64,000 nucleotides of DNA from NCBI GenBank assembly GCA_001887945.1, contig LDOQ01000320.1, positions 62,001-126,000 on the forward strand, written 5' to 3'. The stretch's first letter is position 1, and the number at the start of each line of letters is the position of its first letter. Of this stretch, positions 19,573-39,795 are shown one piece after another. The notes below the pieces were generated by a model. That model worked only from the letters and a program-made list of their open reading frames with translations, was not told where the DNA came from and made no database searches. Source of the DNA: Spraguea lophii. Taxonomy: Eukaryota; Microsporidia; Spragueidae. The position numbers and the translations under genes were made by a program.

Positions 19573-20727
19573 ATGAGATTATATCTTTTTCCTTCAAAAA
19601 TTCTATGTGCGTATAAAGTATATGAAGAATACGAGGAAAATAATATTGAAAATATTAAAGAAATATGGGATGATAATACACACATAATAACATATATATC
19701 ATGCGAAAACGGAGAATTTTGGTTAAACGATACAGAATTCATACGAAAAGGCGTTGCATTGAGTATTGATTATAAAGAATTTTTTAAAAATTCTAAATAT
19801 ATCGATAAAGAAAGTTTAGTAAAAAGTTTTAATGATATGATTTATTGGAAAAATTGCATTTTAAGTTCTGATAATATTTTAGAACTTGGGGAAGCTTTAA
19901 TTAATTATAATGTGTTTAGAATTGAGTATTTAGAATATATTATAAACGAATTGGAAAGGTTAAAATATGCCAAAGAAAATGAATTTAATAAGAATCGAGC
20001 TAACGGAATCTATGAAAATGGGAAAAGTTATTATTTTTATAAGACAGATAAATTTGGTAAATTGAAGCATATTTCTGGTTGTGAATATGAAGAAAAAAAT
20101 CTTGTTATTGTTAAATACAATTTTTTTAGATCAAAAATAATGAGTTCAAAACTTGCTGGAGAATATCCAAAGATTAAATTATTATCTATTCAAAATATAC
20201 CACATGTTGCATATCAATTTAATAATTATGTAGACTCAAACTACGAAGAATATAAAAAAGAAACAACTAATTGCTTGGAGATTATAAAAAACAGTGATTT
20301 AACAACACCTGCTGAATGGTTTTACGTTAATTTTGAACATTCTTTTAAAATAATTGAACGTACATTGAAAAATCTTAAACACGGAAAACCTTTTAAGAAA
20401 GAAATATATGAAAAATTCAATTGGGATAAATTACTGAACGACACAGGTGGTAATTTTTCAGTTACCGATATAAAACTTTATATTTATCTGTGTAAATATT
20501 TAAATCTTATTTCCATGGATGAAAGATTATATTGTTTGAAAAAAACTTGGTATGATTTATATATGATGGCAGTAAAAAAGGCGGATTTTTTTTCTGAGTA
20601 TTTTGCTGTAGGTAAAGATGCTTCTTATGAAAGTGTTCTAGAATTCTGTAACGATTTTAGTTTAAAAAATTTTAATAGTGAGAAATATCAGATTTTTTTA
20701 AAAAGTACATATATTATGAGAAATTAA
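19573..20727 (+). CDS. Secreted IW/GxDxS-family protein (paralogue A)
   Basis: A 384-aa unknown that begins with a short hydrophobic leader (LYLFPSKILCA, cleavage predicted near residue 13). It is clearly homologous to the gene at 21976. Shared blocks include YEEYE, the IW motif KEIWDDNT with FWLNDTEF (about residues 35-55), DNILELGEALINYNVFRIEY (about 104-123), KLAGEYPKI (about 195) and FFSEYFAVGKDASYESVLEF (about 340-359). The mature protein is soluble and mostly helical by composition. A secreted, possibly host-directed role is inferred from the leader, family expansion and lack of homologues I know. There is no CCC before the ATG. Its GC content is higher than that of the core genes. Confidence 0.85.
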   Translation: MRLYLFPSKILCAYKVYEEYEENNIENIKEIWDDNTHIITYISCENGEFWLNDTEFIRKGVALSIDYKEFFKNSKYIDKESLVKSFNDMIYWKNCILSSDNILELGEALINYNVFRIEYLEYIINELERLKYAKENEFNKNRANGIYENGKSYYFYKTDKFGKLKHISGCEYEEKNLVIVKYNFFRSKIMSSKLAGEYPKIKLLSIQNIPHVAYQFNNYVDSNYEEYKKETTNCLEIIKNSDLTTPAEWFYVNFEHSFKIIERTLKNLKHGKPFKKEIYEKFNWDKLLNDTGGNFSVTDIKLYIYLCKYLNLISMDERLYCLKKTWYDLYMMAVKKADFFSEYFAVGKDASYESVLEFCNDFSLKNFNSEKYQIFLKSTYIMRN

Positions 20728-20755
20728 AAATAAACAATATATAAAAGCTGGATTT

Positions 20756-20941
20756 ATGTTTAATCTTGTATTCTACATAAATCGATTCGAGGATGAAATT
20801 CAAAGATTAACCAATATATTAAAATATTTGTTATTATGTAAAATTCTCATTTTAGCTATTTGCATCGGGGGTGATTTCCTTTTATTATGTTTTATTGTAA
20901 ATATTCTTCAACGACACGGAGAATATCTTTTTCTGATGTAG
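20756..20941 (+). CDS. Possible small two-helix membrane protein
   Basis: A 61-aa frame starts 28 bp after the preceding stop codon on the same strand. It encodes a polar start (FYINRFEDEIQRLTNILKY) and then two hydrophobic stretches (LLLCKILILAICIGG and DFLLLCFIVNIL, about residues 25-51). Composition is less AT-rich than the flanks, which favours coding or a gene relic. There is no CCC signal and no family match. It could equally be a decayed 3' fragment of a duplicated neighbour. Confidence 0.3.
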   Translation: MFNLVFYINRFEDEIQRLTNILKYLLLCKILILAICIGGDFLLLCFIVNILQRHGEYLFLM

Positions 20942-21975
20942 GAAAGCGTTCTGTGAAACAGGCCATTATTTATTAGAAAAGAACTTGGTTTTAGTTGTTT
21001 GAATGCTTTATAGCGTAAAAATACTCAAAACATTCAAGGAACATCAAACATTATTAACTTATAATGAGATAAACCATAATGCCTAACAGAACATATCGCA
21101 AATTATAAATCAAAAACAACAATTTGAATTAAATCTTTTATTAATGTTGGCTATTGCTTGAAGTTTATATTTTGTTATTATTTTAATAATAATATTTAAG
21201 TCACAAAATTTTATATTTATCCGGACGAATAATTTTAACTCAAGTAATTTACCTTATTCATATATTTATTGCCATTTCATTGTTATTACTTCAACTTTGA
21301 TAATAAATTGACATGAAGTCATTCCAAACTTAAAACAATTCAGAATATTTGTAAATTAATTAATATTATCATTTTAAATTTGCTTTTACAAATCATGTTT
21401 TTGTTTCTCCTATTTTTTCCTTTATTTATAAAATATACTCAAATTTTCATAAGGAAGAATAGTAAAATGATTATTTACTTTTAAAATAGAAAATTTTTAT
21501 TATATAGAACAGCAAAAAGTTTTTTTAGCTGTCAAAACCAAATAATGTGAAGTATTTATATTTATGTAAATTTTATTGAAAATAAACACTTAAATATTAT
21601 CAATAATAAATATGAAATACATAATGGCACGCTCCGGGTGCGTAGGAATTTATTAAGTGGCGATAATACGTTAGCCAGTTATATATCAAGTCATGAGGTT
21701 TTTGTCGAGAACTGGACTTAGTTAATAAATTATATTTGGAAAATTTATGACAAAAGATCGTGTTTATTTAATATTTATTTTGTTAAACATTTCAAAGGAG
21801 AAAGTCATTCTTTGAAAGATGCTGTTAAATATATCAATTATTTATTTTCCATCGACCACCTCCTTTTATTGTGTATGTAACACATAGTTCTATCTATCAA
21901 AACGTCAACGTTACATTTTAACAAGTATTTGACAGTTTATAAAACTATATATTGATATCAATGGTATAGTCCATA
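20942..21975. other. Spacer between secreted paralogues with possible relic
   Basis: About 1 kb. Around 21610-21850 the composition is richer in G and C (CACGCTCCGGGTGCGTAGG at 21628). A plus-strand frame reads, with one stop, as a peptide containing HSLKDAVKYINYLF. This looks like a degraded gene but I cannot assign it. The remainder is AT-rich. Confidence 0.4.
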
Positions 21976-23175
21976 ATGATTTTTAATAAATTTGTATATC
22001 TTATGAGCTTAAATTATATTTTTCTTTCAAGAATCGTATGCGCAACATATGAAGAGTATGAATTTCCGGAAGAAAAAATTGAAAATGTTAAAAACATATG
22101 GAATAACGATCTTCAAACCCAGACATATTTAACCTATGAAGGCGATAATTTTTGGTTAAACGATACTGAATTTATGGTAGATGGCATTGGTATCTCTTTG
22201 ACTTTCGACCATAATGAACTTTTCGAAATCTGTAAATCGACAAATCAAAATGATATAAAAAGAAGCTTTGATGATATGAATAATTATAAGAATGAGATTT
22301 TAAATTCCGATAATATTATAGATCTTGTAGAAGCCTTAACCAACTATAACGTATTCAGAATCGAATATTTGAAATATGTTGTAAATGAATTTAACAATGA
22401 ATCTAATCTAAAAAAATGTGCGTTTAAAAAAGCAGGGACCAAGAAATTAACTGAAATGGGTGGATACTATTACCTTAATATAGACGAACAAAAAATAAAT
22501 TTAAACAATATGTCTTACGGTGAAGAAGAATATAAGTTATCTGATATAGCGCGTTGTAATCTTTATAAATCGGAAATTATGCGTTTTAAACTTGCAGGAG
22601 AATATCCAAAGATTCGTATATCATCTATGCAGATTATACCACATATTACATCTACGTTTAACAATTATATGATAGCGTTTACGCATTGCGATGAATATAT
22701 TGGATATCTAAAAGAATTACGGGAATGTTACGGTAGTATAAGAAGAAACAAGCTATCAACACCAGAAGAAAAGATTTATAGTCTATTTTGGTTTATTTTG
22801 TGCGATGTTGAACAGGTGCTGAAAGATGCTTTATATGGAAAACTTATCGATAGAAAGATAAGCAAAACGATTGACTGGGAAAAGTTAATGGAAAATATTA
22901 ATGGAGACCTTTCAGTCGATGATGTAAAGGTTTACATTTATCTTAGCGAACGTTTTAGAAATTTAGCCTTGCACGAACGTGGATATTTTTCAAAGAAGGG
23001 AGATCAAGATTTATTGGATATGGTAATGGAAAAGTTTAAATTTTTTTCAAAATATCTTGTTGTAGGAAAAGATATATCTTATAAAAGTTTATTAAAATTC
23101 TGTGAAGATTTTACATTTAAAACTTTCAATTATGAAAATTATCAAATATTTATACAAAAAGATTATATCAAATAA
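21976..23175 (+). CDS. Secreted IW/GxDxS-family protein (paralogue B)
   Basis: A 399-aa paralogue of the 19573 gene, in tandem and 1.25 kb downstream. The leader is longer and canonical (MSLNYIFLSRIVCA, residues 10-23, cleavage predicted before TYEEYE). The shared motifs are KNIWNNDL with FWLNDTEF (about 41-60), NIIDLVEALTNYNVFRIEY (about 114-132), FKLAGEYPKI (about 205-214) and FFSKYLVVGKDISYKSLLKF (about 355-374). Blocks between these motifs differ by insertions and substitutions, so the duplication is not recent. The start is preceded by GTCCATA, a CC-only version of the start signal. GC content is the highest of the window's long genes. Secreted role is inferred. Confidence 0.87.
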   Translation: MIFNKFVYLMSLNYIFLSRIVCATYEEYEFPEEKIENVKNIWNNDLQTQTYLTYEGDNFWLNDTEFMVDGIGISLTFDHNELFEICKSTNQNDIKRSFDDMNNYKNEILNSDNIIDLVEALTNYNVFRIEYLKYVVNEFNNESNLKKCAFKKAGTKKLTEMGGYYYLNIDEQKINLNNMSYGEEEYKLSDIARCNLYKSEIMRFKLAGEYPKIRISSMQIIPHITSTFNNYMIAFTHCDEYIGYLKELRECYGSIRRNKLSTPEEKIYSLFWFILCDVEQVLKDALYGKLIDRKISKTIDWEKLMENINGDLSVDDVKVYIYLSERFRNLALHERGYFSKKGDQDLLDMVMEKFKFFSKYLVVGKDISYKSLLKFCEDFTFKTFNYENYQIFIQKDYIK

Positions 23176-23399
23176 GTTTAAGAATAAGGTTGAAGTTAAA
23201 GTATTAGACTCGATTTAAATAATATACAATCTTATGTATATCTATACCGATGGTAACTGTTATCTTGAAGATTTATAAATAAACTTTCAGGTAAGTAAAT
23301 TTTATTTTTTTTATTCGTTAAAGTTTAATCAGATTGAAAACTTATTATCTGTTATGACCCATCACAATCTGAACTGGATAACATATTAAACCATATATT
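23176..23399. other. Short spacer
   Basis: Between secreted paralogue B and repeat copy 4. AT-rich, no frame. Confidence 0.3.
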
Positions 23400-23600
23400 A
23401 AATTAGTATTAGCTTATTTTATTATATATATTCATTAATCTCATCTTATTTATTATACCGTTGGACTGAATATTTGCATATGGTACTTATTATTATCATA
23501 ATACAATTTTACTGGGGTTTTATATCTTTTGGGCATAGTATCGATCATATTATTTATCGATACAGAAATTGTGATTACATCATTTTATCATTGTTAATTT
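23400..23600 (+). repeat. Dispersed repeat, copy 4
   Basis: The block ATTCATTAATCTCATCTTAT at 23430 is followed downstream by CTTTTGGGCATAGTATCGAT and ATACAGAAATTGTGATTACA. These appear in the same order and at similar spacing as in the copies at 30730 and 51800. Strongly AT-shifted. Confidence 0.7.
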
Positions 23601-23928
23601 TTTCTAGAAACATCTCAACATAAAAATACAATACTGTACGATAACAATTATTGATTTTTTTGAATACATAAATATTTAATATATAATTTTTATATATCTT
23701 TAAACCTCGCAGTTCTTGTCTCATGGATTGGATATATTGTATTTAAATCTTTTAAAAATATTTATAAAGGTTTCCAATAAAAATAATGTATAATTAACCT
23801 TTGTTTATGTTTAAACAAAGACACATAATACATTACAAGTAAATAATAAATCAATCAACGTCATTTTGTATTTAAACTTAGTATAATATTTTTTTTAGAA
23901 TAAATTATTTTTTTCCTTGGCCCTAATA
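23601..23928. other. Upstream region of cyclophilin
   Basis: About 330 bp, AT-rich, containing an imperfect inverted pair around 23806-23818 (TTTGTTTATGTTTAAACAAA). The last 12 bases hold the GGCCC start signal. Confidence 0.4.
23921..23923 (+). promoter_or_regulatory. CCC start-site signal of cyclophilin
   Basis: The sequence GGCCCTAATAATG places CCC five bases before the ATG at 23929. This rules out the upstream TTG at 23917 as the start. Confidence 0.75.
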
Positions 23929-24417
23929 ATGGAAGTATTTTTTGATATTACAGCTGATGGAGAGAAATTAGGACGTATCGTTATGGTTCTTTTTAATGAC
24001 AAAGTCCCTAGAACATGTGAAAATTTCCGTGCCCTTTGTACCGGAGAAAAAGGATTTGGTTACAAAGGTTCTATATTTCATAGAGTAATTCCGCAATTTA
24101 TGTTACAAGGAGGAGATTTTACTAACGGAAATGGATCAGGAGGTAAAAGTATTTATGGAAGAGTTTTTGCTGATGAAAACTTTTCAGTTAAACACACAGG
24201 ACCAGGAAATTTATCCATGGCTAACGCAGGTCCAAATACTAATGGATCTCAATTTTTCATAACAACAATTAAGTGCGACTGGTTAGACGGAAAACATGTT
24301 GTTTTTGGACAAGTTAAAGAAGGAATGGATGTGGTTAAGAAAGTCGAGAGTTTAGGCACACCATCTGGTGCTACCAAGAAGAAAATTATTATTTCTGATT
24401 GTGGTGAACTAAAATAA
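23929..24417 (+). CDS. Peptidyl-prolyl cis-trans isomerase (cyclophilin A type)
   Basis: A 162-aa single-domain cyclophilin that catalyses proline cis-trans isomerisation, probably in the cytosol since no leader is present. Catalytic and ligand-binding residues are all visible: the FHRVI Arg (about residue 50), FMLQGGDF (about 55-62), the [21 protein letters not shown] block (about 91-111) with its Phe, and the Trp/His pair in [10 protein letters not shown] (about 116-125). Length equals that of CypA. The real ATG follows the GGCCC signal. The gene is noticeably less AT-rich than its neighbours, probably from codon bias in a highly expressed gene. The identification is firm. Confidence 0.97.
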
Positions 24418-24459
24418 ATTTTATTTTCGTTCTTTTTTATTTCTTTTAATAAATATTTA

Positions 24460-25431
24460 TTATTTATCCAATTTGATTATTATGTTTAATTTATTTCCTA
24501 AGTTATGGAGTGATGATATTAAATCTTCTTCTATTTCTAAATGGTATAATTTCTTTTTATCTTTAATATAAAATTTAAATTCTTCATATTGTTTTAAATC
24601 TATCATCTTATCTATTATTTGTTTTTCCGGATAAAAATATTTACCTATTCTTGCAATAGATTTTTTCTTAATATTTTCAATTTGTTTTTGAGAAGAGATA
24701 AAGAATCTAAGATCATTGAATTCAATTCTAAAAAATAAATCTTCTTTCTTTCTCTCTCCAAATTTTATTTGATGCTGTGATAATATAGTTTTTTTGTAAT
24801 CTATTAAATCTAATTTTGATTTTATATGTTCTTTTTCGTCAATCGTTTCTTTAGATTTATATGTTTTCTTTTCATTTTTTTTAGTATCTTCTATATTTTT
24901 TTGTTTTTTATTATTGCTATTTCCTTTCGTATTTTTTCTCGATGTTTCTTTATATTTTATTTCATCATCCAATATTCTATCAATAATACTTTCTTCCCTG
25001 CGTCTTTCATTTTTAATCGATTTTTTAACTCTTAAAGATTTCACCATTTCGTTATCACTATCTTTTTCAATCTTAATTTCACTTTCTTTTTTCTCTTTTT
25101 TATTCAACTTCTTTATGTCCTGTATCAATTTAAAACTTCTTTCCATTAACTCTCTATTTTTGAAATTTATTTTTAACTTCTTTGTATGATTTATTTTGTA
25201 TTTAAGTTTAATATATTTATCTTTTATATCTATATCTTTTATATTTTCTGGTTTTATTATTTCTTCAACCTTATTGTGCACAATAGCCAAACCTTCGGTA
25301 AAAAACATAATATATATAACACATTCATCATCTTTATAAACAGTGCGTGTCTTATGGTAAAAAATATATTTTCCTATTATTGCGTCATTAAAATCTTCAT
25401 GAATAATTTTATCTAATTTTTCAGCATTCAT
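24460..25431 (-). CDS. Unknown Lys-rich protein with PH-like N-terminal domain
   Basis: A 323-aa protein without a recognised family. Residues 1-105 alternate short hydrophobic strands (KYIFYHKTRTVYKDDECVIYIMFF, then GLAIVHNKVEE, then DKYIKLKYKI) and end in a helix (RELMERSFKLIQDIKKL). This pattern resembles a PH or PH-like fold, but that is inference. Residues 105-200 are Lys/Glu/Asn-rich and disordered. Residues 205-323 form a second folded part rich in Phe and Tyr, with similar strand spacing. A nuclear or chromatin role is possible (double PH domains are found in histone chaperones) but unproven. There is no CCC before the ATG. It is convergent with cyclophilin, 42 bp away. Confidence 0.8.
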   Translation of the reverse strand: MNAEKLDKIIHEDFNDAIIGKYIFYHKTRTVYKDDECVIYIMFFTEGLAIVHNKVEEIIKPENIKDIDIKDKYIKLKYKINHTKKLKINFKNRELMERSFKLIQDIKKLNKKEKKESEIKIEKDSDNEMVKSLRVKKSIKNERRREESIIDRILDDEIKYKETSRKNTKGNSNNKKQKNIEDTKKNEKKTYKSKETIDEKEHIKSKLDLIDYKKTILSQHQIKFGERKKEDLFFRIEFNDLRFFISSQKQIENIKKKSIARIGKYFYPEKQIIDKMIDLKQYEEFKFYIKDKKKLYHLEIEEDLISSLHNLGNKLNIIIKLDK

Positions 25432-25582
25432 AACGTTGAAAGAATATTCAAATTAAAAATTTATAAAGAAATGTTTCAAATGATATCCAATAGAAAATAA
25501 ATATAAAATGATAAAAGAAAGATATTGGTTTTTGAAAAATAGAAATCAAATTTTAAAAATTTTAAAACTTAGTACTTTTTAT

Positions 25583-26620
25583 TTATTTTTCTATTCTTAG
25601 ATCTTTTCTCGTGTCTGGGAATTCTACTATGGTTGCTTGTGTTTCTAAACGAGGGCTTGGTATATCTGTAATGTATTCTTCTCTGTTACATTTTTCTTTC
25701 TTTTTTATTAGATCATCATCAAATAATTGAGATTTTAGTGGACATAACATTGAAATTATCAATATTCTTATCGATAAAAATGTAAAGAATAACATCTTTT
25801 CTATCAAATAATCTATAAATGGATTTGTTATGTTTATAGCCAATATATTTATTGTATATCTCAACGAAGAATCTAGAACTAATAAAAATAGGAGTAGATT
25901 GGGTGTATCAAAGCTATAATCATTGTATTTTACACTTTCATAAAATTTTATCTCCAATACAAACATCAATAATACAACAACATATATTTCTGTGCTATAA
26001 AAGAAATTTCTATAGAATATAGTCGTCTTTTCATTGTAAAAATGATAGAAATCAATAAATATTGTGAGAGGTATTCTGAAAAAAGAATATAATACTGCAA
26101 ATGTTGATACAGAAACATTAGATAATTTACTTTCTATATTTGGTGTATGTCTAAGACCTTTATCATCAAAAAATAAATAATTAAGATCATTTCTATTCAC
26201 GTCTAATCTTTTTCCCATAGCAAAATTATATGCACAAGGCACCCACAGACCTATCATCAGAAAAAGTGTTGTAGTTGTCAAACTTTTTGACAAATACAAA
26301 CACACATTTAAAACTTGTACCAAATTAATTTCTCTTTGGTATACCGTTACCACATACTTGCCAAAATACGTTCCCAAATCTTCAGATTGTCTTCTATCTA
26401 TATCCGCATATGTAGATAAAAACAAGATAAGAAGATTATACGCTAATAAACATATAATAGAAGATAAAAAACACAGAACCGAAACACTTCTTAGATTTCC
26501 TGTAAAAGCTTTCAACAATTGTACCTTACTAGATTTGTTTACTCTCCATATTGTAAAGGATAACAAGAACGTTGAAAATATTATCTCATCAATATTTGAA
26601 TATATCAGCTCGTCACTCAT
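25583..26620 (-). CDS. Unknown multi-pass membrane protein
   Basis: A 345-aa integral membrane protein with about seven hydrophobic segments, near residues 12-27, 45-70, 108-128, 173-190, 208-226, 238-262 and 272-295. They are separated by short polar loops, and a charged cytosolic tail of about 45 residues ends the protein. No transporter or receptor signature is recognisable. The second loop, RRQSEDLGTYFGKYV, and the region FDDKGLRHTPN are the most distinctive polar parts. Composition is balanced and low-complexity tracts are absent, so it is a well-conserved gene in its lineage. No CCC signal is seen. Function is unknown. Confidence 0.82.
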   Translation of the reverse strand: MSDELIYSNIDEIIFSTFLLSFTIWRVNKSSKVQLLKAFTGNLRSVSVLCFLSSIICLLAYNLLILFLSTYADIDRRQSEDLGTYFGKYVVTVYQREINLVQVLNVCLYLSKSLTTTTLFLMIGLWVPCAYNFAMGKRLDVNRNDLNYLFFDDKGLRHTPNIESKLSNVSVSTFAVLYSFFRIPLTIFIDFYHFYNEKTTIFYRNFFYSTEIYVVVLLMFVLEIKFYESVKYNDYSFDTPNLLLFLLVLDSSLRYTINILAINITNPFIDYLIEKMLFFTFLSIRILIISMLCPLKSQLFDDDLIKKKEKCNREEYITDIPSPRLETQATIVEFPDTRKDLRIEK

Positions 26621-26841
26621 TAACCAAACAGAAAAGCTCCGCCTTAAATACTCATAGTTTCAAATCTGAAACATGTTTAAAAAATTTAGATAATTTTAAA
26701 AATAAAAAGAATTAATATTTTATTTTTAATCAGAAATACGCCGATGAATAAGATTTTCTCTCTCGCTGCTAAAAATATAAATATATTTTAAAATTTACAT
26801 TTTAAATATAAAACACGTGTTTTAAAATTGTTAAACATTTT
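26621..26841. other. Short spacer
   Basis: AT-rich spacer between the membrane-protein gene and the helical-repeat gene. No signal seen. Confidence 0.3.
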
Positions 26842-28446
26842 TTATGGTTCTTTCATTCTTTTACTATCTCTCAAAGATTTATCATCCATATTTCTTTTTC
26901 TAATTTCTCCATCTTCCAAATCTTTTAATTCCATCTCTCTAACTTTTATATTAGCTAAAGAACTATTAGCTATCAATCTAATATCTTCATATTTACTATT
27001 ACACAACTCTTCTATTTTAATTATCATCCATTCTTCTACCTTTACTTTATTTATAAAAAGTATAAAACATCTAATTCCTATATATTCCACAGGAAAATTA
27101 TCTTTAAAATCTTTTATAATCAAATTATTCATATCTTCATTCAATTTAATATTTTTTATTTCCAATGGTGTTAAATATTTTATAAAATTATAAAAATTAT
27201 TTTTTTCTGGTATTTTTATTTTTCCATTGTCGTTTTCTTTCAGGATATATTTTATTTTATTTTTTAATTCTTTATATTTATCTAATAATTCTATTCTCTC
27301 ATTTATAAAACAATTTTCATATTTAAATATTTCTACTTCTATATTTTTTATTGTTTTATATATTTTTTTATAAAAAATCATATCTTCTTCTTTCTTTATT
27401 ATAATTTCTAGAAGATTATAATAATAGAATTTCTTTCTTTTTAGTAATTTTCTTAAAATCTTTTTTATTATTTTATAATTTACATCCAATAATCCCAATA
27501 ACTTAGATACATTAAATATTTTATCATTAAATTCTTTATAATTGTTTATTTCTGTTTCTATAATGTAATTTAAAATATAAAAATAAAATATATCTCTTAT
27601 AGCAGAATGAAATTGATTTATAACACTAGCCATCGTTTCTATACTGCTACTAAATTTTATAACCTCTTCAACCATACTTTCTATAACACTGATAGGTGAT
27701 AATAATAATATTTTTTCTAATTCATAATATATTTTCATTATGTTTGTGGTACTTAATCTTTTTATAAATTTCTGTGCATTCTTTTTATATTCTTCATTTA
27801 TTTCAAAATAATTATTTTTGTATGGATTACATTGTTTTCCTTCTCTGAATATTTTATACGCTATAAAATTTAATGGTATATCTTCTATATTACCTGTATT
27901 TTGAAATAATTCTGCTTTTTGTATAAACATTCTATTTTCTATATTATTTTCTATTAAAGATCGTTTATACATTATTCCATCCATTACTATATTTTTTACA
28001 TTAAAATATTTCTGTAATAAATAACTATCAATATATAATTTCTTTTGATACAAATGATCCATTATTGAAAAAAATTTATCTTCTTTTATTTTTATATTTT
28101 TATTGTTGATATTAATATAAAAATATCCTTTCTTATGTTTTATTTTACCATTATCTTTTATTTCTTTCATAATATCTATATATTTTAAAATATCTATAAA
28201 AACATTACCCTCTCCTGTGTTTAAATATGCAGAGAATAATGCATAATCTGTAATATTTGTTTCTATCTCAAATATTCTATCCTGCACATAATTTTTTATT
28301 GTATTTATATTTTTTAAATATTTTATATCTTCTTTTGTTACAATATTATTCTCTGTTAAAAATGAAAGAGGTTGTATCAAAAGAGATATTTTAGAATCAG
28401 AAGGATTTTTTAATTCTTTAATGATTTCTTCTTTAGTAAAATTCAT
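26842..28446 (-). CDS. Unknown all-helical protein (HEAT-like)
   Basis: A 534-aa protein that appears helical throughout, with repeated pairs of hydrophobic helices resembling a HEAT or ARM solenoid (about residues 10-500) and a short charged tail containing LEDGEIRKRN. Such tails occur in nuclear RNA-processing scaffolds, but I see no signature that fixes the family. Symplekin-like, THO-like and nucleoporin-like scaffolds are all possible. The start is set by CCCTTATG, the canonical signal, which suggests a conserved housekeeping gene. No low-complexity expansion is present, in contrast to VPS13 and ELP2. Confidence 0.85.
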   Translation of the reverse strand: MNFTKEEIIKELKNPSDSKISLLIQPLSFLTENNIVTKEDIKYLKNINTIKNYVQDRIFEIETNITDYALFSAYLNTGEGNVFIDILKYIDIMKEIKDNGKIKHKKGYFYININNKNIKIKEDKFFSIMDHLYQKKLYIDSYLLQKYFNVKNIVMDGIMYKRSLIENNIENRMFIQKAELFQNTGNIEDIPLNFIAYKIFREGKQCNPYKNNYFEINEEYKKNAQKFIKRLSTTNIMKIYYELEKILLLSPISVIESMVEEVIKFSSSIETMASVINQFHSAIRDIFYFYILNYIIETEINNYKEFNDKIFNVSKLLGLLDVNYKIIKKILRKLLKRKKFYYYNLLEIIIKKEEDMIFYKKIYKTIKNIEVEIFKYENCFINERIELLDKYKELKNKIKYILKENDNGKIKIPEKNNFYNFIKYLTPLEIKNIKLNEDMNNLIIKDFKDNFPVEYIGIRCFILFINKVKVEEWMIIKIEELCNSKYEDIRLIANSSLANIKVREMELKDLEDGEIRKRNMDDKSLRDSKRMKEP

Positions 28447-29519
28447 AAGGGTATAATTTTATTTCATTGTAATTGACAGATACAAACAATTTCTTTTTGA
28501 AATAAAAATAAATTAAACCCAAAAATGACAATTTTTTTATTCAGCATCAAAGATAAAAAAATTTTTAATGACCTTCAAAAGGGGCATACGTAGGGTACCC
28601 AACTCCATGAAATTTCGATTTTTATCTTGTTATCTCATTGGTAGAATCACAAATCAGCAAAGAATTTATGATTACACCGTCTAAATAAAAATTTTGTAAA
28701 ATTTTTGGCAAGGTACATGCATAAGTCGTGATTCTGAATTTTTGAAGATTCAATAAATATTTTGGTCTAATTTTTTTAATAATCCAATAACTGGGTTATA
28801 AACAAATAGGAGAGTTACCTTTTTTAAAAGATATAGTTTTATATAAATGTTTATTTGTATAAACAAAAGAAGTTTTTACGTTTTTTCGTATCAATTTTGT
28901 AAACATCTTTTGTTTTCCACCAGAGGAGAATAAAATCTTTTGCGCGTCTTTTACTGGGATATCACGACTATTACAATCTCAAACATAAACACCAAACATC
29001 ATTTATCATCAATGTTATCTTTAAAAAAAGATCAGCACTTAATTAATTCTTCAAAACCATAAATATTTACAATTTAGAATTAATTTATTTTGATTTCAAA
29101 AAAGATATATTAATATATCTTCAATATTTCAATTGATATAAGATTAAGTTATTAAACAAAGTCCTTCACAAATCGAACGAATATTTTTTATATAAATTAT
29201 TTTAGCAATATTCTCTCATAAATTAGGTTAATTTAAATATACCATTTTAAGTCATACAAATACAAACTAACATTATTAAACACAAAACCTTAATTAATTA
29301 TCTCTTAAATCGTCTATAATCCCAAATGATAATTTCCTAATAATTATCCAATAACAAAAATTTAACATTTATTTTTAATAAACATAATATTTTGTATGCT
29401 ATTTAATATTTCAAAATATTATTTCACTCACATATTTTATTTCTATCAATGATTCTATTTTATCTTTATATAGAAAAAAATATATTATAATGTATTTAAA
29501 CAATGTTTAAATATAACCA
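28447..29519. other. Gene-free region with hairpin-forming segment
   Basis: About 1.07 kb. Between 28850 and 28920 there is an imperfect inverted repeat (AACAAAAGAAGTTTTTACG and, inverted, TGTAAACATCTTTTGTT) next to a small palindrome, GTTTATTTGTATAAAC. Near 28595 GGGTACCC occurs, and CC precedes a 24-codon frame. I do not regard that frame as a gene. Confidence 0.45.
28449..28451 (-). promoter_or_regulatory. CCC start-site signal of helical-repeat gene
   Basis: Gene strand reads CCCTT ATG, which decides the start at 28446. Confidence 0.75.
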
Positions 29520-30626
29520 ATGTTTCTTTTAATATTTTTATTTCAAAAAATACACAGTATAAACCCGAACTTTGAAATATGGAATGAAAATCCTGTATTA
29601 GAAACAATAATAAAATATCATAATGAAAATATAATAATATCTCATTTAGATATTTTCCAATATGAAAATTTATATTCCAATCCTCCAATTGATGATATCA
29701 ATATTAAAATGAAAGAAGAAGACGTCACAAAAATAAAAAATAAAATTTTAGACAATTTAGAAAAAAATAATATAACTATTTTAGATTTAGCAATAGATTT
29801 ATATGAATATTATCACCACAAAATAGAATATCATAATAAAATATGCGATCACTTACAAGAACTTCTTAAACGCAATATCGATAATGGATATCTTTTTGAT
29901 ATGTTTAATTTAATAGTTGATAAATTTTATTTTTATATAGGATTTATAAGAGATAAAAAATTAGAAGAAGATGAAAGATTAGTTTTTTTGTATTTTCTTT
30001 TAAACCATAAAGAACGCAAATTAAATCAAATATATAAACAGATAATCGAATACGAGATACCCAAATGTTATTTATATGTGAAATATCGTACAAATTCAAT
30101 ATTAATTAATAATCATTTAGATATTTATAATTCTTACAATATAATCAGATTTTATAAAAAACTTAGTCTTTTTATAAACTTACTGTTAGAGAATAAAGCA
30201 ATTTATAATAGTTTACCATCGAAAGATTGTTTGGATATCTATTTTCAAACGGGATATTATGACATGATATACAATTTATATGAATTTAAATACAATCGAT
30301 TCGATATAGAATATTGCTTTGATGGAATAGATGTAGATTTTCAAATGTTATTTGATTTTTTGATAAAAAAATATGGTGGTATGTGTAGTAATAGCCAGAA
30401 AGATAGAATTATAAAAGAATTGGGGCTTGGATCTGTTTTAAATGTTTTCTGCATGAAATATACGATGTATTTGAAATATATGGATAATTATAATTTTTTA
30501 AATTCATATTTTGTAACACAAAAAGATCTAAGTATTAAAAAAGCAGTTGAAATTGTCAATGTTTTGATATGTAAAGATTTCGATCTAAAAAAGATATGTA
30601 AAAAATATATAATAATAAAAAAGTAA
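29520..30626 (+). CDS. Secreted IW/GxDxS-family protein (divergent paralogue C)
   Basis: A 368-aa unknown with a clear leader (LLIFLFQKIHS, residues 3-13). It is a distant member of the family at 19573 and 21976. FEIWNENPVLETIIKYHNEN (about residues 18-37) aligns with the IW block, and FLNSYFVTQKDLSIKKAVEI (about 325-344) aligns with the C-terminal GxDxS block, here with Gln for Gly. The protein ends soon after that block, as the others do. Middle sequence is not alignable by eye. The start follows AACCA, a weakened CC signal. Homology is inferred from collinear end motifs and equal length, so it is less secure than for the tandem pair. Confidence 0.75.
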   Translation: MFLLIFLFQKIHSINPNFEIWNENPVLETIIKYHNENIIISHLDIFQYENLYSNPPIDDINIKMKEEDVTKIKNKILDNLEKNNITILDLAIDLYEYYHHKIEYHNKICDHLQELLKRNIDNGYLFDMFNLIVDKFYFYIGFIRDKKLEEDERLVFLYFLLNHKERKLNQIYKQIIEYEIPKCYLYVKYRTNSILINNHLDIYNSYNIIRFYKKLSLFINLLLENKAIYNSLPSKDCLDIYFQTGYYDMIYNLYEFKYNRFDIEYCFDGIDVDFQMLFDFLIKKYGGMCSNSQKDRIIKELGLGSVLNVFCMKYTMYLKYMDNYNFLNSYFVTQKDLSIKKAVEIVNVLICKDFDLKKICKKYIIIKK

Positions 30627-30729
30627 TATAATAAATTTATTGCTATGATTTTGTTTCAAAATATTAATTATATTTTTTCGTTCCTTTAATTTTTTTTTAT
30701 TAATGAAACTTTTATTTATAAAGTTCCCT
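30627..30729. other. Short spacer
   Basis: AT-rich spacer before the GC-rich repeat copy. Confidence 0.3.
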
Positions 30730-31020
30730 GACCTGTTGCCGCCTACCATGGTCTGTGACCTTCGGTTCCTCGAGCGAATCTAAGCTTGTACTAACTGGTT
30801 TCGCTACAGATATGCATTCATCTCATCTTACCTTATGCTCCAGAGTGTTAGGATTTTGCGTCTGGTGCACGTCGCCGCCCCCTCCAAGCTTTTAAGGAAT
30901 TCTCAGCCTTTTTCGTTGCATAGTATGGGCAAGTCACAAATCAATACAGAGATTGTAATGGCATCAGCTAAACATTACTTTGATATAATAGCGGGGCGTC
31001 ATACAAGGCCCAGTTAATAT
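30730..31020 (+). repeat. Dispersed repeat, copy 5 (GC-rich, best preserved)
   Basis: About 290 bp, including CTACAGATATGCATTCATCT, ACCTTATGCTCCAGAGTGTT, GCGTCTGGTGCACGTCGCCG and AATACAGAGATTGTAATGG. It aligns in order with copies at 9140 (reverse strand), 10305, 15140, 23400 and 51800. Roughly half G+C, against about one fifth in the window, so it is probably the least decayed copy. Frames within it are short and unlike known proteins. Confidence 0.75.
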
Positions 31021-31200
31021 TGTGTTATCGAACCCTCACCCTCTCAATAATCTTTTTCTTCTCTTCTGCTTTTATTCTTATTATTTTTTTTTGAAAATTT
31101 TTCTGGATGAGGGGTTCGAATCTACCAGGCTTGGGGTTTGGTTACCATCCCACGACCACTGGGACAAGTGGGACCCTTCATGTTACCAGCAAAAAAAACA
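31021..31200. other. GC-rich tail next to repeat copy 5, with tRNA-like B box
   Basis: It contains GGGGTTCGAATCTACC at 31106, which resembles a pol III B box, and a near-palindromic pair CGAACCCTCACCC / GAGGGGTTCG around 31028-31115. The T-stem pairing of a real tRNA cannot be completed, so this is not called as a tRNA. Confidence 0.4.
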
Positions 31201-31559
31201 TTTTTGAATATTTATGAACTTGTTTAATAACGAATTGAATACGTTTTTCACCTATTCTAAATTAATTTTTTGGTGTTTTGGGGTTTTAAGGCATCTGAAA
31301 AAATAACATAAATGGGAATAATGAATATAAATAGGTTTAAAAATTTATTCTTTTACTTTTAAATCTGTTAATATTTTTATATGTTCTGTTATAGCCTTTT
31401 CTGATTTTAAATATTGTTTCTGTAAGTATTTTTTTAAACCAATACTATATTAATTTAATCTTTTATGTGTTAATATCACTGTTTTTCGGGTCAACGAATT
31501 TTTTTTGTGATTTTTCATAAAATGCTCATATTTGTTTTATTGATATTATCTTAATCTTT
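31201..31559. other. Gene-free flank of Merlin remnant
   Basis: AT-rich. It may hold the decayed 3' end of the reverse-strand Merlin relic that follows. No clear inverted repeat found. Confidence 0.35.
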
Positions 31560-32060
31560 CAAACTATTTGTTACTATTTTGTTCTTTTCGTTTACATGTT
31601 TTTTCTATGATGTTGTTAAGTTTTGTTGAATTCCCTTTCGATTAACCTCGAAAAATGTCTCTGAACTTTCTCTATCTATATCATCTATATGTCATAGATT
31701 TTTTAAACCTCTATCTCTGTTATACTTCCTTTTAGGAATGCATGATTCGTCGATTTCTGCCCAGATCTGATTATCTCCTATTCTCTTATTGTATTTATTA
31801 TCAAAGATGTTAACCAAAAGTTTAATAACTGTTTTAATTGATGAATAATCAATATTATATTCGTTTATTATATTCTTATACGATGAAAAGGTGCAAATTT
31901 CGTATATTATTTTTATAATTACTGCAAGAGATATTTTAGTTCCCTCGAATAACGACTTTTTTCTAATTGAACTCGATTTATTTCTGCATTTATATCTATA
32001 ACATCTCCAAATATCTCCTTCAAACGATTTCTATCTATCAAAACGACTAGTTTTTATATT
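31560..32060 (-). pseudogene. Merlin transposase remnant
   Basis: The reverse strand can be read across stops and small frameshifts as a Merlin/ISXO2-type transposase. A zinc-ribbon-like piece WRCYRYKC with KSLFEGTKISL (31920-32020) precedes the catalytic block IWAEIDES with PKRKYNRDRG (31705-31770) and a following SSETFFEVNRKG. The order and spacing match the better preserved element at 13797. Several stops separate the pieces, so it is dead. No terminal repeats were found. Confidence 0.75.
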
Positions 32061-32765
32061 TTGAACATCAACTTGATTTTTTTAATCTACCTATGTTCAT
32101 TGGCCAATTAGCAAACATAAAACTATTAACACATTTACTAAATAATTGGACTTTTGATGTAACTATTAATTCATCCATAGAGGTTATTTTTTCACATGCC
32201 TTAAATAATATTTATAAATGGATGAATGATATGAAATGATTAATAATAATATTTCAATGTTAATTTCTATTATTTTATATGCATAGATTTAATAAATAAA
32301 CGGGTTATTTTTGAAAAATAAATTTTAATATTATTTTCCAATAAGAACGATGAAAATATTTTTAAGTATAAGTGTATAACAGTTCTAAGCAATAATAAAA
32401 TTGTTAATAAAATTTTATTGAAGTATTATGATTTGAATACATTTAAAACCCCCAATATAATATTTTTATTTCTTTAAATTTAGATATTTAAATAAAATGT
32501 ATCTTTTATAAAATATTTTATATCATGTTTTCTAGTTTAAACTGTCAAAATCAAATGTCATAATATTTTCAAATTTTTTATTTTTTGACATTTAGAAATA
32601 TTTGTATAAGAACAATATTAAATCTATTGTGTGTATAGACACCAACGATATTAAAATCCATTTTATAGCAGGATTTAATAAATATCTTTGTGAGACATAT
32701 TTGATTAAATCCACTCATATTTAATTTATGAATTTTCGTATATTGTTAATAATTTTTAAAGAAAC
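32061..32765. other. Upstream region of secreted paralogue D
   Basis: About 700 bp, AT-rich, partly flank of the Merlin remnant. No frame or signal seen except the CC just before 32811. Confidence 0.35.
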
Positions 32766-32810
32766 ATGTCAACATATGTTGAAAATAAATATGTTGGAAT
32801 CATCTATTCC

Positions 32811-34028
32811 ATGGTGTTTTTATTGGATTTTATAAATTTTTTTCTTTGTACAAGTTTTTGTGCTATGCAATCCGAATTTAATTCGGACATAGAAATGATA
32901 AGTACATGGAATAATAGCCACATAACAAAAACTTATATTTTTTGTAATAATCTTGATATTGCATTGGATATAATACCACTTGATAAAGGTTTGTTTGAAA
33001 TAACTTTAGATTATTTTGAAGTGTTGCGATTTTTGGAATTAAATGATCTTCCATACGCAAATTTAAAGAGAAGATATTTGAATATAATACGTAATAAAAA
33101 GAAATTATTTGAATGCAAATCAATATCCGATATATCAAATGAGTTAAGCGAATATTTGAAATATTTAGAAATATTTTTGAAGGACTTGATAAACGAATGT
33201 ACTACTCATTCTAGAAGATATTTTGAAATCAAAAGATTTTCAGAAAAGAAATATCACAACAAGATAAAAAATAATTTCGTTAGAAAAATATTTTATAAAA
33301 AGAACTTAAATAGTTTAAAATTTATAAAAAAAATAGAGGCATTAGCGGAATATAATTTAAACCGGTTGAAAAAAACACAAAAAATATTATATATTGAACA
33401 TTCTAGGATGTTCCCTAATGATTATGAAATTATTATGAATAGCAATATTACAGATTATTATCAGGAATTTATAAAAACAACTATCAATAATATAATTTTA
33501 TTATCAACGGTTAATCAGATATACAACTGTTTTTCAGAAATAGAAAATTACATTATTGAGGCTTTTTTCATTTTATACCAAATAGAACGAATATTAACTT
33601 CAATTATATGCAACGATAGAAGCCAGGAAATTTCTTTACTGTGCGGATATGATTATATGAATATGCACACGGATTTTGCAGAATTTTTGGATATTTATGA
33701 TTTCATGAGATATATTTTCATAAATACTCAGCTTCAAAAAATTGCAAAAGTAGAAAAAAAATATTATAAAAAATTGGGAATGACGATAAACTATAATATT
33801 GCAGTGAACAAAGAATTATTTCTTGCAAACTATATATTAATTGGATCAGATGCATCTATACAAAGTTTTCTAACACTTTATAATTCATTTAAACCAGGCG
33901 AATTCCACAATTCGGGATTCAAAATATTAGAAAAGAAAAAATATCATTATATTTTGTCGCGCTCTGGTGTAGGAGACGATCAGTTAGATGATTGTGATAT
34001 GTTGACCGCAAAATTACTGGGTCACTAA
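32811..34028 (+). CDS. Secreted IW/GxDxS-family protein (paralogue D)
   Basis: I place the start at 32811 (406 codons including the stop) because it follows TTCC and gives a clean leader (MVFLLDFINFFLCTSFCA). An upstream ATG at 32766 would add 15 residues. The IW region reads STWNNSHITKTYIFCNN (about residues 25-41). The C-terminal block FLANYILIGSDASIQSFLTL (about 345-364) matches FFSEYFAVGKDASYESVLEF of paralogue A almost position by position. The middle is rich in Lys, Ile and Tyr and may be helical. A 40-residue C-terminal extension (SGVGDDQLDDCDML) is private to this copy. Secreted role is inferred. It sits between two transposon relics. Confidence 0.83.
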   Translation: MVFLLDFINFFLCTSFCAMQSEFNSDIEMISTWNNSHITKTYIFCNNLDIALDIIPLDKGLFEITLDYFEVLRFLELNDLPYANLKRRYLNIIRNKKKLFECKSISDISNELSEYLKYLEIFLKDLINECTTHSRRYFEIKRFSEKKYHNKIKNNFVRKIFYKKNLNSLKFIKKIEALAEYNLNRLKKTQKILYIEHSRMFPNDYEIIMNSNITDYYQEFIKTTINNIILLSTVNQIYNCFSEIENYIIEAFFILYQIERILTSIICNDRSQEISLLCGYDYMNMHTDFAEFLDIYDFMRYIFINTQLQKIAKVEKKYYKKLGMTINYNIAVNKELFLANYILIGSDASIQSFLTLYNSFKPGEFHNSGFKILEKKKYHYILSRSGVGDDQLDDCDMLTAKLLGH

Positions 34029-34479
34029 AACTTTGTTGGAGGCCAAATTTAGGTAATAAATTGGTCTTAGAAAACTTATTGCAAAAAACAGTTTTAGTAA
34101 ATGTTGCGTCTGGTGCGTGTAACCATATTCGAATCCTCGTAAAACCAAAACTTTTATTACTAAATAAAAAATAAGTTTTATTTAATAATTTTTACACTAC
34201 TCATTAAAACATTTTACTTTTTTGAGATTTATTGTTTTTTACTTCAATGAAATTATTTACATGGATATTTACTCATATATATAATCAACCACCTATTTTT
34301 CTTTTTGGTATTTTTATTAGCAACAAAATCTTTTTTAATTAAAACTTTATTTCCTATATTTATTTCGTATTTTGATATTTTTAGATTACAATCTTTATCT
34401 ATCTAATATATCCTTTCTCACAAAAGTAAATTCATTGGAAAATAATTCGGCGCTTTCATTATTACATTGTATTGTTATA
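34029..34479. other. Gene-free region with decayed repeat fragment
   Basis: Near 34105 the word GCGTCTGGTGCGTGTAACC echoes GCGTCTGGTGCACGTCGCC in repeat copy 5, followed by ATTCGAATCC. This may be a short fragment of the dispersed repeat. Otherwise AT-rich without frames. Confidence 0.4.
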
Positions 34480-37950: not shown

Positions 37951-39795
37951 TCATTCTTTAACAGAATATAGACTATCAACTCTCAATAAAGTTTTTACTG
38001 CAGTTAAAGCACTCTTATACATATTCTGTTTAACAACCACTGGTTCAATAACACCCATACTAACCATATCAGCCACTCCATCAATACTCATTCCATATTC
38101 TTTTCTTTCTCTACTATGGTTTAATCGTAATTCTTGAATAGTAGCTATACTATCCATACCAAAGTTATCAGATAATGTTTTAGGAATTATTTCAAAAGCC
38201 TGTGCTAATGCTCTGTATACTAATTTGGATTTTGTTTTAAGTTTCATTGAAATATCACGCAATTCTTTGGATATTTGCATATCAACAGCACCTCCACCAG
38301 GCACAAGATGTAAATCATCGTTAAATATCATTTTATCGTTTTCTTTCATAACATCAGTGGTAGAATGTATTTTTGTTAAAATGGATAATCCATCTATTAA
38401 ACTTCTTTCGGCTTCATCCAATATTTCTTTACCTCCACCTCTTAATAATAAAGTGACTGTGCTATTATTTTTATTCGTAATAAAATTATATCTATATTTT
38501 CCTATTTGTTTTTCTTCAAAAAGATCACACTTACCAACATCTTTCATATTTCCCGTTGTTATTTCTTCATTATTACTTTCTATATTTTCTGTAGATGCAT
38601 TTATTCTACATCCACACATAGCACTCATTCTCTTCATATCTTCCATTCCTACTCTTCCTGCACTAAATATATTATATCTAGCAAAATACTGCGTAGCATA
38701 GTCTCCAATACTCTTAGTGCTAAATATAACATCAGCACCTGATTTTCTTATCGCATCAAGCTTTTTGTTGATTATATTCCATTCTGCATTAACAAATTTC
38801 TGATAATTATAAATATCAGTTTTTATTTCTGCATTATCTCTCTCACTCTGCCATTCCAAATCAACACTCAACAACAATATTTTAGGTTCTATTATTTTCT
38901 TTCTCATCTGCATATGTCCAGCATAAGAAAATGTCTTTTCAAAACATATACCATCAACAAGAATAGAATCTAAAAGATTCTTTCCTACCACCTTTTTTAT
39001 AGAATAATTTTTATTATGCATAGCAACGAGAATCTCACTAAAATATTTCTTTGAATTTTTTAAAATCTTAGAAGTCAATGCAGTACCTGCAACTTTCAAC
39101 AAGAAATTATTTCTAATATCAGATGCATTAATATTGATTTTAGCAACAGAATCATTAACCTCATCAGTTATCGTAGTTTCATCTATTGTATTATTATCAT
39201 TTATTACTGCATTATCATCATCAACCTCAGTAGTATTATTATCATCAACCTTAGTAATAGTATTATCATCCACATTCGTAGTATCATTTACTGCATTACC
39301 ATCCTCAGTAATAGTATTTTCTTCTTTATTATCATCCACAGAATTAATTATACTATTATCAGATTTATCTTCCAAACTAATAATATTTTTTCTAATAACA
39401 ATATCCACAACATCCACTATCTCATCTATTACATTAACTATATCAATTACCTCATATTTACTTTTAACCAAACTTTTCAAACAATTTAATATCTCTACTG
39501 CCAACAATACCACACTTGTAGTACCATCACCTATTTCCACATCCTGACACATACTTAAACTATGCAACAACCTAGCACTTGGATGTGAAAGAGATAAATG
39601 ACTAAGAATAGTAGCACCATCGTTAGTCAGTATTAAATCATCATTATCACTGTTGTTAATAAGCTTATCTCTACCATAAGGACCCAAGGTAGTTTTTAAA
39701 ATATTACTAATTTCTAGCCATATATCAATGTTAGAAAGTAAACATGGTATACCATCTCGAGTATCTTGATGTTCTATAACATTTATATTAGACAT
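37951..39795 (-). CDS. CCT7: CCT chaperonin subunit eta (CCT7/TCP-1 eta)
   Basis: A 614-aa subunit of the cytosolic CCT/TRiC ring that folds actin and tubulin. Group II landmarks: LGPYGRDKLI (about residues 37-46), NDGATIL (about 58-64), GDGTTSVVLLA (about 90-100) and the C-terminal GGGAVDMQISKELR (about 503-516). The subunit eta markers DNAEIKTDIYNYQKFVNAEWNIINKKLDAI and GDYATQYFARYNIFSAGRV (about 325-390) follow CCT7 closely. An Asp/Asn/Thr-rich insertion of roughly 75 residues (about 148-223) with repeated VDDN units makes it longer than the usual 540-560 aa. CCC lies five bases upstream of the ATG. Confidence 0.94.
   Translation of the reverse strand: MSNINVIEHQDTRDGIPCLLSNIDIWLEISNILKTTLGPYGRDKLINNSDNDDLILTNDGATILSHLSLSHPSARLLHSLSMCQDVEIGDGTTSVVLLAVEILNCLKSLVKSKYEVIDIVNVIDEIVDVVDIVIRKNIISLEDKSDNSIINSVDDNKEENTITEDGNAVNDTTNVDDNTITKVDDNNTTEVDDDNAVINDNNTIDETTITDEVNDSVAKININASDIRNNFLLKVAGTALTSKILKNSKKYFSEILVAMHNKNYSIKKVVGKNLLDSILVDGICFEKTFSYAGHMQMRKKIIEPKILLLSVDLEWQSERDNAEIKTDIYNYQKFVNAEWNIINKKLDAIRKSGADVIFSTKSIGDYATQYFARYNIFSAGRVGMEDMKRMSAMCGCRINASTENIESNNEEITTGNMKDVGKCDLFEEKQIGKYRYNFITNKNNSTVTLLLRGGGKEILDEAERSLIDGLSILTKIHSTTDVMKENDKMIFNDDLHLVPGGGAVDMQISKELRDISMKLKTKSKLVYRALAQAFEIIPKTLSDNFGMDSIATIQELRLNHSRERKEYGMSIDGVADMVSMGVIEPVVVKQNMYKSALTAVKTLLRVDSLYSVKE

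What the first reader, a model, noticed from the sequence alone, without database searches (positions are those of the whole stretch)
19573..34028. Undescribed secreted family with IW block and C-terminal GxDxS block
Four genes (19573, 21976, 29520, 32811) have a leader, similar length (368-405 aa), an N-terminal 'IW-[ND][ND]' block about 10-20 residues after the leader, and a C-terminal block of the form [FL]-x3-Y-x3-[GQ]-x-D-x-S-x6, 30-60 residues before the end. Two are clear tandem paralogues. Two are recognisable only by collinear end motifs. They occur in a 15-kb island with transposon debris. A fast-evolving, lineage-specific, host-exposed family is the simplest reading.
Basis: partly seen in the sequence, partly recalled or inferred. 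Interest (0 to 1): 0.75.

Follow-up and report, generated by a model that had tools for sequence, protein, structure and literature searches.

The report
Dispersed secreted-type gene family in Spraguea
A fish-infecting microsporidian carries about ten scattered copies of a fast-diverging gene whose proteins start with an export-like leader and have no relatives found elsewhere; they probably face the host, and such private secreted families are common in these parasites, so this is a new example of a known kind.

Summary
The window is from Spraguea lophii or a very close isolate (gene A is SLOPH_1122 with 2 of 384 residues changed). Three of the four genes (A 19573, B 21976, D 32766) belong to one family with five further full-length members on five other contigs; leave-one-out profiles recover each of the eight at 52-247 bits. 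Gene C (29520) fails that profile (1.2 bits) but matches the family by profile-profile comparison (40.0, against at most 23.2 in 200 shuffles and 21.7 in 30 real decoys), so it is a probable, very divergent member. There is no island: A/B is the only tandem pair and other genes lie between. The GxDxS motif is in only 4 of 9 proteins; the shared mark is the N-terminal tryptophan. One AlphaFold model (pLDDT 77) is mostly helical, without a convincing PDB or viral match. Three protein searches found no relative outside S. lophii. Secretion and host exposure are inferred, not shown. A real lineage-specific family, not described in the papers searched; new member of a known kind.

The parts
19573..20727 (+). 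Gene A (384 aa), tandem paralogue; orthologue of SLOPH_1122 of isolate 42_110 (2 residue differences)
19573..19611 (+). Gene A leader, short (13 residues); by eye B's start codon aligns to a GAA codon, so A starts at the position of B's second Met
   Evidence: sequences; alignment by eye; cleavage site inferred
19660..19740 (+). Gene A N-terminal block IWDDN...FWLNDTEF
20587..20700 (+). Gene A C-terminal block (FFSEYFAVGKDAS...YQIF)
21976..23175 (+). Gene B (399 aa), tandem paralogue of A (42% identity); identical to a database protein
   Evidence: AlphaFold model
21976..22044 (+). Gene B leader, 23 residues ending VCA (signal-peptide-like)
   Evidence: cleavage site inferred, no SignalP available
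22093..22173 (+). Gene B N-terminal block IWNND...FWLNDTEF; W42 invariant in the 8 aligned members
23041..23154 (+). Gene B C-terminal block (FFSKYLVVGKDIS...YQIF); helix-strand-helix-strand in the model
29520..30626 (+). Gene C (368 aa), probable divergent member; 180 residues match partial SLOPH_2524; 81% identical copy C' in two pieces at the ends of contigs C32 and C36
29574..29654 (+). Gene C N-terminal block (IWNEN...)
30495..30608 (+). Gene C C-terminal block (FLNSYFVTQKDLS...)
32766..34028 (+). Gene D (420 aa), divergent member; best matches are on contigs C5 and C12, not in the window
32901..32981 (+). Gene D N-terminal block (TWNNS...)
33819..33932 (+). Gene D C-terminal block (FLANYILIGSDAS...)
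33951..34025 (+). Gene D C-terminal extension of 25 residues without counterpart in most members; no repeat match found under it
30690..31174 (.). High-copy dispersed repeat just 3' of gene C (not part of the family)

Best explanation
The genes are members of a Spraguea-specific family of about ten mostly dispersed, uninterrupted paralogues. Each encodes an N-terminal leader followed by about 350 residues of mostly helical protein without a clear later membrane segment. Shown here: the family's extent in this assembly, its conserved ends, the hydrophobic N-termini and a fairly confident model for one member. Inferred: the leader sends the protein into the ER and out of the parasite, which in Spraguea grows inside the host cell. 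The conserved N-terminal block (helix, invariant Trp, beta hairpin) and C-terminal block (helix-strand-helix-strand) form the scaffold, while the variable helical middle with its low-confidence loops binds fast-changing partners, most likely host proteins; each paralogue would be a binding variant on one scaffold. I put about 0.55 on secreted and host-facing; the binding mechanism itself is weaker, about 0.3.
For: Eight members recover each other in leave-one-out HMM tests (52.1-247.3 bits; 20 real window decoys at most 4.6 bits, 1,800 shuffles at most 6.3). All nine full-length proteins have a hydrophobic 11-residue stretch near the N-terminus (mean KD 1.38-2.75) and none has a 19-residue window above KD 1.6 after residue 45 (C6 1.58 and D 1.51 come close). 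W42 and L61 are invariant in 8 of 8. Conservation is highest at residues 41-60, 321-340 and 361-380 of B and lowest at 161-180 and 221-240, which overlap the model's least confident stretches 148-181 and 218-234. B model: pLDDT 77.1, pTM 0.74. Only S. lophii proteins match. No Pfam match above cut-off for nine proteins and no NCBIfam match at E<=1 for B, C and D. C versus C' dN/dS 0.51, bootstrap 0.34-0.83: constrained, loosely. Precedent: Nematocida host-exposed proteins are enriched for targeting signals, clade specificity and large families, and germination-released S. lophii proteins for signal peptides and clade specificity (PMC5423893, passages).
Against: No expression, secretion or localisation data. 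The main text of the S. lophii genome paper does not name SLOPH_1122 or SLOPH_692 (find); its figures and supplements, which list the secreted proteins in full, could not be opened. No SignalP was run; gene A's leader is only 13 residues and has a proline in this isolate where 42_110 has leucine. The same features fit parasite-internal secretory or spore-coat proteins. The four proteins comparable between isolates differ at 0-2 residues, which gives no sign of an arms race within the species. Spraguea-specific genes as a class were enriched among duplicate pairs in which both copies decayed in North American Spraguea (PMC4948709, passage), so some such genes may be dispensable. That the two end blocks pack together was not measured, since no coordinates were available.
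Confidence: 0.55

Rival explanations
1. Spore-wall, polar-tube or plasma-membrane-associated structural proteins of the parasite: exported through the ER but retained on the parasite, with paralogues used at different stages.
For: A leader without a clear membrane segment fits equally well. Spore-wall proteins were among those recovered from germinating S. lophii spores (PMC3749934 section 11).
Against: No Pfam domain above cut-off. Paralogues are only 17-43% identical to B, high divergence for a structural coat protein (general expectation, not tested).
Confidence: 0.25
2. Intracellular secretory-pathway proteins, or membrane-tethered proteins with an uncleaved signal anchor, without host contact.
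For: The leaders are of variable strength (KD over 11 residues 1.38 to 2.75), two members (C6, D) have a later window just under KD 1.6, and signal anchor and cleaved leader cannot be told apart here.
Against: The B and D leaders end in cleavage-like VCA and SFCA (read by eye), and ER residents are rarely private, fast-diverging ten-copy families (general knowledge).
Confidence: 0.15
3. Gene C is unrelated and only mimics the family's end motifs; the true family is the eight others.
For: The full-length HMM scores C at 1.2 bits, below the best shuffle (4.9). A genome search with C found only C and the two C' pieces, and a database search with C alone found nothing. Its AlphaFold model is poor (pLDDT 53.6, pTM 0.49) even with the family in the alignment.
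Against: hhalign of C+C' against the family scores 40.0 (C alone 33.5); 200 column shuffles reach at most 23.2 and 30 real decoys at most 21.7. The alignment is collinear (19-106 with 40-133) and the C-terminal block is in place. The ends of the model show the same order of elements as B, though the alignment leans that way.
Confidence: 0.2

Closest known systems
Lineage-specific large gene families with signal peptides in microsporidia, e.g. NemLGF1 and NemLGF5 of Nematocida (PMC5423893, passages seen)
   Same: Private to one genus or species, leader-bearing, paralogues strongly diverged
   Different: No sequence relation found in the protein searches; about ten members here against 18-169 for the four N. 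parisii families; mostly scattered single genes, while NemLGF1 and NemLGF5 are enriched at chromosome ends and the four families often adjacent; localisation untested here while members of the Nematocida families were found in the host-exposed fraction
S. lophii leucine-rich-repeat family (PMC3749934, section 8 read)
   Same: Same organism, many members with predicted signal peptide, Spraguea expansion
   Different: No leucine-rich-repeat match in our nine proteins; an LRR protein near the C12 member does not match the family profile (hhalign 14.7, within the decoys)
Ricin-B-lectin-like secreted family of microsporidia (PMC3749934, passages seen)
   Same: Multigene, secreted members, some adjacent gene pairs
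   Different: No RicinB match by Pfam; B model almost all helical, whereas RicinB is a beta-trefoil (recalled)

Membership tests
Microsporidian 'large gene family' as defined in PMC5423893 | at least 10 homologous proteins in one genome (profile HMM) | tested here: inconclusive
   8 secure members plus C and C' make 10 only if C and its copy count; C' is seen in two pieces with a short gap; genome searches score best candidates only, so counts are lower bounds
Microsporidian 'large gene family' as defined in PMC5423893 | at least 2-fold enrichment in predicted signal peptides or transmembrane segments | tested here: inconclusive
   9 of 9 full-length proteins have a hydrophobic N-terminal stretch; no SignalP and no genome-wide background
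Microsporidian 'large gene family' as defined in PMC5423893 | members confined to genus or species (as for 59 of 68 families there; typical, not required) | tested here: met
   Only S. lophii proteins found: 3 at E<=0.1 of 6,043 candidates, 3 at E<=10 of 7,997, none for C alone; the search is limited to relatives sharing 5-residue words and to similar lengths
S. lophii LRR family | leucine-rich repeats | tested here: not met
   no LRR model at E<=1 in nine proteins, while the nearby LRR protein scores 1e-33 in the same scan
Ricin-B-lectin-like family | RicinB lectin domain | tested here: not met
   no RicinB model at E<=1; B model almost all helical
Host-exposed / effector proteins | demonstrated presence in the host cell | not testable with these tools
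   needs proteomics or microscopy
The Spraguea W-block family described here | gene C: recovery by the family profile | tested here: inconclusive
   HMM 1.2 bits against hhalign 40.0 with clear separation from controls

The most novel reading that the evidence does not exclude
A Spraguea-only family of secreted proteins on one new helical scaffold, in which the conserved first and last blocks build the core and a free-to-vary helical middle carries a different binding surface in each of about ten paralogues. They are exported into the xenoma host cell and switched on outside the usual CCC-type core promoter.
Probability: 0.25. Interest if true: 0.6.

Novelty: new member of a known kind. Interest (0 to 1): 0.38.

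Why it matters
S. [quoted passage not shown] This adds a compact, defined candidate set of about ten proteins with one fairly confident model and clear conserved residues. Five of the eight secure members were not found among deposited proteins of comparable length. It also shows that searching with one member undercounts such a family: the search with the C9 member reached only two others, and with C none.
Full report
What it is. The window lies in a 5.27-Mb, 73-contig assembly. Protein matches identify the organism as Spraguea lophii or a very close isolate: gene A matches SLOPH_1122 with 2 of 384 differences, the C9 member matches SLOPH_692 with 0 of 411, and 180 residues of gene C match partial SLOPH_2524 with 1 difference. 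Gene B is identical (399 of 399) to a database protein whose source the tool hides because the window encodes it; its contig length (11,986) equals that of SLOPH_1122.

The observation. The four ORFs exist as described, except that D has an earlier ATG at 32766. A and B are 42% identical, D matches B at E 1.2e-9 over nearly its full length, and C's best BLAST match is to A over about 50 residues near the C-terminus (E 0.002 and 6e-4 in the two directions of a four-protein comparison). The literal 'IW-[ND][ND]' fits A and B; C has IWNEN and D has TWNNS. The looser [ILMT]W[NDE] in residues 16-75 is in 9 of 9 members and 2 of 35 control ORFs. The C-terminal [FL]x3Yx3[GQ]xDxS is in 4 of 9 members (the four in the window) and 0 of 35 controls. 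These patterns were chosen after seeing the sequences.

Extent of the family. Own-genome protein searches with B, C, D, C9, C12, C6, C5 and C45 bring up one set of places and no others at E<=10: A, B, D on C67, and one gene each on C45, C6, C9, C5 and C12, with open frames of 382-416 aa from the start I chose. Not every query reaches every member: C9 finds only itself, B (E 3.9e-5) and C6 (1.4e-4), and C finds only itself and its copy. C has one copy, C', 81% identical over residues 1-308; that piece lies at the start of contig C32, and residues 316-368 (87%) at the end of C36. About seven residues between the pieces are not in the assembly, so whether C' is one intact gene cannot be told. The DNA match starts at window 28607, about 0.9 kb upstream of the gene (86% over 1,907 columns), so this is a segmental copy. 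SLOPH_1064, a fragment from isolate 42_110, is 139 of 174 identical to C and 128 of 174 to C' without gaps, hence probably a third copy there. Counts are lower bounds, because the tool scores best candidates only.

Is it one family? Leave-one-out HMMs built from seven members find the eighth at 247.3, 236.5, 199.3, 167.0, 52.1, 105.2, 118.5 and 122.1 bits (B, A, C45, C6, C9, C5, C12, D), while 20 real window decoys stay at or below 4.6 bits and 1,800 shuffles at or below 6.3. C scores 1.2 with the full profile (best shuffle there 4.9) and at most 9.1 with any leave-one-out profile. Profile-profile comparison of C+C' against the eight gives 40.7 (P 7.8e-5) and 40.0 (P 9.7e-5) in the control script, aligned 19-106 to 40-133; C alone gives 33.5; 200 column shuffles reach 23.2 at most and 30 real decoys 21.7 at most. 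I take C as a probable member (about 0.8). A tree of ten rows supports only A+B and C+C'; all other forks are open. D's best matches are C5 (30%) and C12 (22%), so the window genes are not each other's closest kin apart from A and B.

Structure. AlphaFold with the eight-sequence alignment gives B a pLDDT of 77.1 and pTM 0.74: leader helix, helix ending at the Trp block, beta hairpin 51-62, helices 91-109, 114-160 and 170-213 among others, and a C-terminal helix-strand-helix-strand; 66 of 399 residues are below pLDDT 50. C, predicted with the family in its alignment, reaches only 53.6 / 0.49, with 161 of 368 residues below 50, but its ends show the same order of elements (hairpin 31-40, helices 59-81 and 87-119; helices 294-317 and 321-329, strand 330-333, helix 339-349, strand 364-367), and its last 68 residues are its best part (block means 71-83). 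This leans on the family alignment and is supportive at most. No solved or viral structure matched convincingly.

Leader and selection. All nine full-length proteins have a hydrophobic N-terminal stretch (KD over 11 residues 1.38-2.75), and none has a 19-residue window above KD 1.6 after residue 45, though C6 (1.58) and D (1.51) come close; SignalP was not available. In gene A the codon aligned by eye with B's start is GAA, and A starts at the position of B's second Met with a 13-residue leader (sequences). C versus C' gives dN 0.091, dS 0.179, ratio 0.51 (bootstrap 0.34-0.83) over 308 codons: kept by selection, but loosely.

Regulation. A CCC motif just upstream of the start codon is reported for 1,439 of 3,172 Spraguea genes (PMC4948709, passages). 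Here 13 of 30 control ORFs (taken mechanically from the first ATG) have CCC or GGG in the 25 bases before it, and 0 of 9 family genes do (Fisher p 0.018); allowing any in-frame ATG in the first 40 codons gives 16 of 30 against 1 of 9 (p 0.052). No common upstream word stood up to permutation. This hints at a different expression programme, but the sample is small and other Spraguea-specific genes were not tested as a group.

Surroundings. The stretch 30690-31174 is a dispersed repeat: 39 other near-full-length matches at 84-88% identity, with 40 of 418 candidates scored. The 31692-32030 fragment has 87 matches including itself, 70 with internal stops; no transposon family was assigned, since Pfam gave nothing above cut-off. 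Between the members lie a cyclophilin-like gene (23929-24417; name by recall) and three minus-strand genes (24460-28446).

Comparison with the known. Reinke et al. (PMC5423893, passages) found 68 families in 23 microsporidian genomes with at least 10 members and signal or membrane enrichment, 59 without members outside the genus or species, and showed that large families are enriched among host-exposed proteins of Nematocida. Campbell et al. (PMC3749934; abstract, sections 6, 8, 9 and 11 and passages) describe the LRR and ricin-B families of S. lophii and do not name SLOPH_1122 or SLOPH_692 in the main text. The second Spraguea paper (PMC4948709, passages) reports that Spraguea-specific genes are enriched among duplicate pairs of which both copies decayed, which counts against assuming that every such gene matters. 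The present family fits the Reinke kind and matches neither of the two S. lophii families. Three protein searches found it nowhere outside S. lophii.

Judgement. Real, undescribed as far as the searches named above go, and lineage-specific at the sequence level; secretion is likely, host exposure plausible but untested. New member of a known kind.

Noticed in passing
L047 (contig C12:143143-145540), about 1.5-4 kb upstream of the C12 family member: A large leader-bearing leucine-rich-repeat protein (LRR_8 E 1e-33) whose non-repeat C-terminal part (243 residues searched) matches nothing in NCBIfam at E<=1 and no PDB sequence better than E 0.24. Presumably one of the S. lophii LRR family; what the C-terminal part does is open.
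   Followed up: partly
window 19573, 21976, 29520, 32766 and L005, L006, L007, L016, L017: Family genes lack the CCC-type motif before the first ATG: 0 of 9 against 13 of 30 control ORFs.
   Followed up: partly
window 30690-31174: Dispersed repeat of about 485 bp, 39 other near-full-length matches at 84-88% identity among 40 of 418 candidates scored; likely a short mobile element (inference).
   Followed up: partly
window 28607-30689 against contigs C32:1-1897 and the end of C36: A segment of about 2.1 kb including gene C is duplicated at 86-91% identity, and the copy falls on two contig ends, so C32 and C36 are probably neighbours.
   Followed up: partly
window 34106-34400: Another low-copy dispersed repeat just 3' of gene D (71-78% identity over about 210-290 bp on 6 other contigs).
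   Followed up: no
window 37951-39795 (minus strand): A chaperonin-like (CCT) protein with a long Asp/Asn/Thr-rich low-complexity insertion in its first half (name by recall, sequence seen).
   Followed up: no
contigs C45, C6, C5, C12 and window gene D: Five of the eight secure members were not found among deposited proteins of comparable length: assembly gaps or real presence/absence differences between isolates.
   Followed up: no
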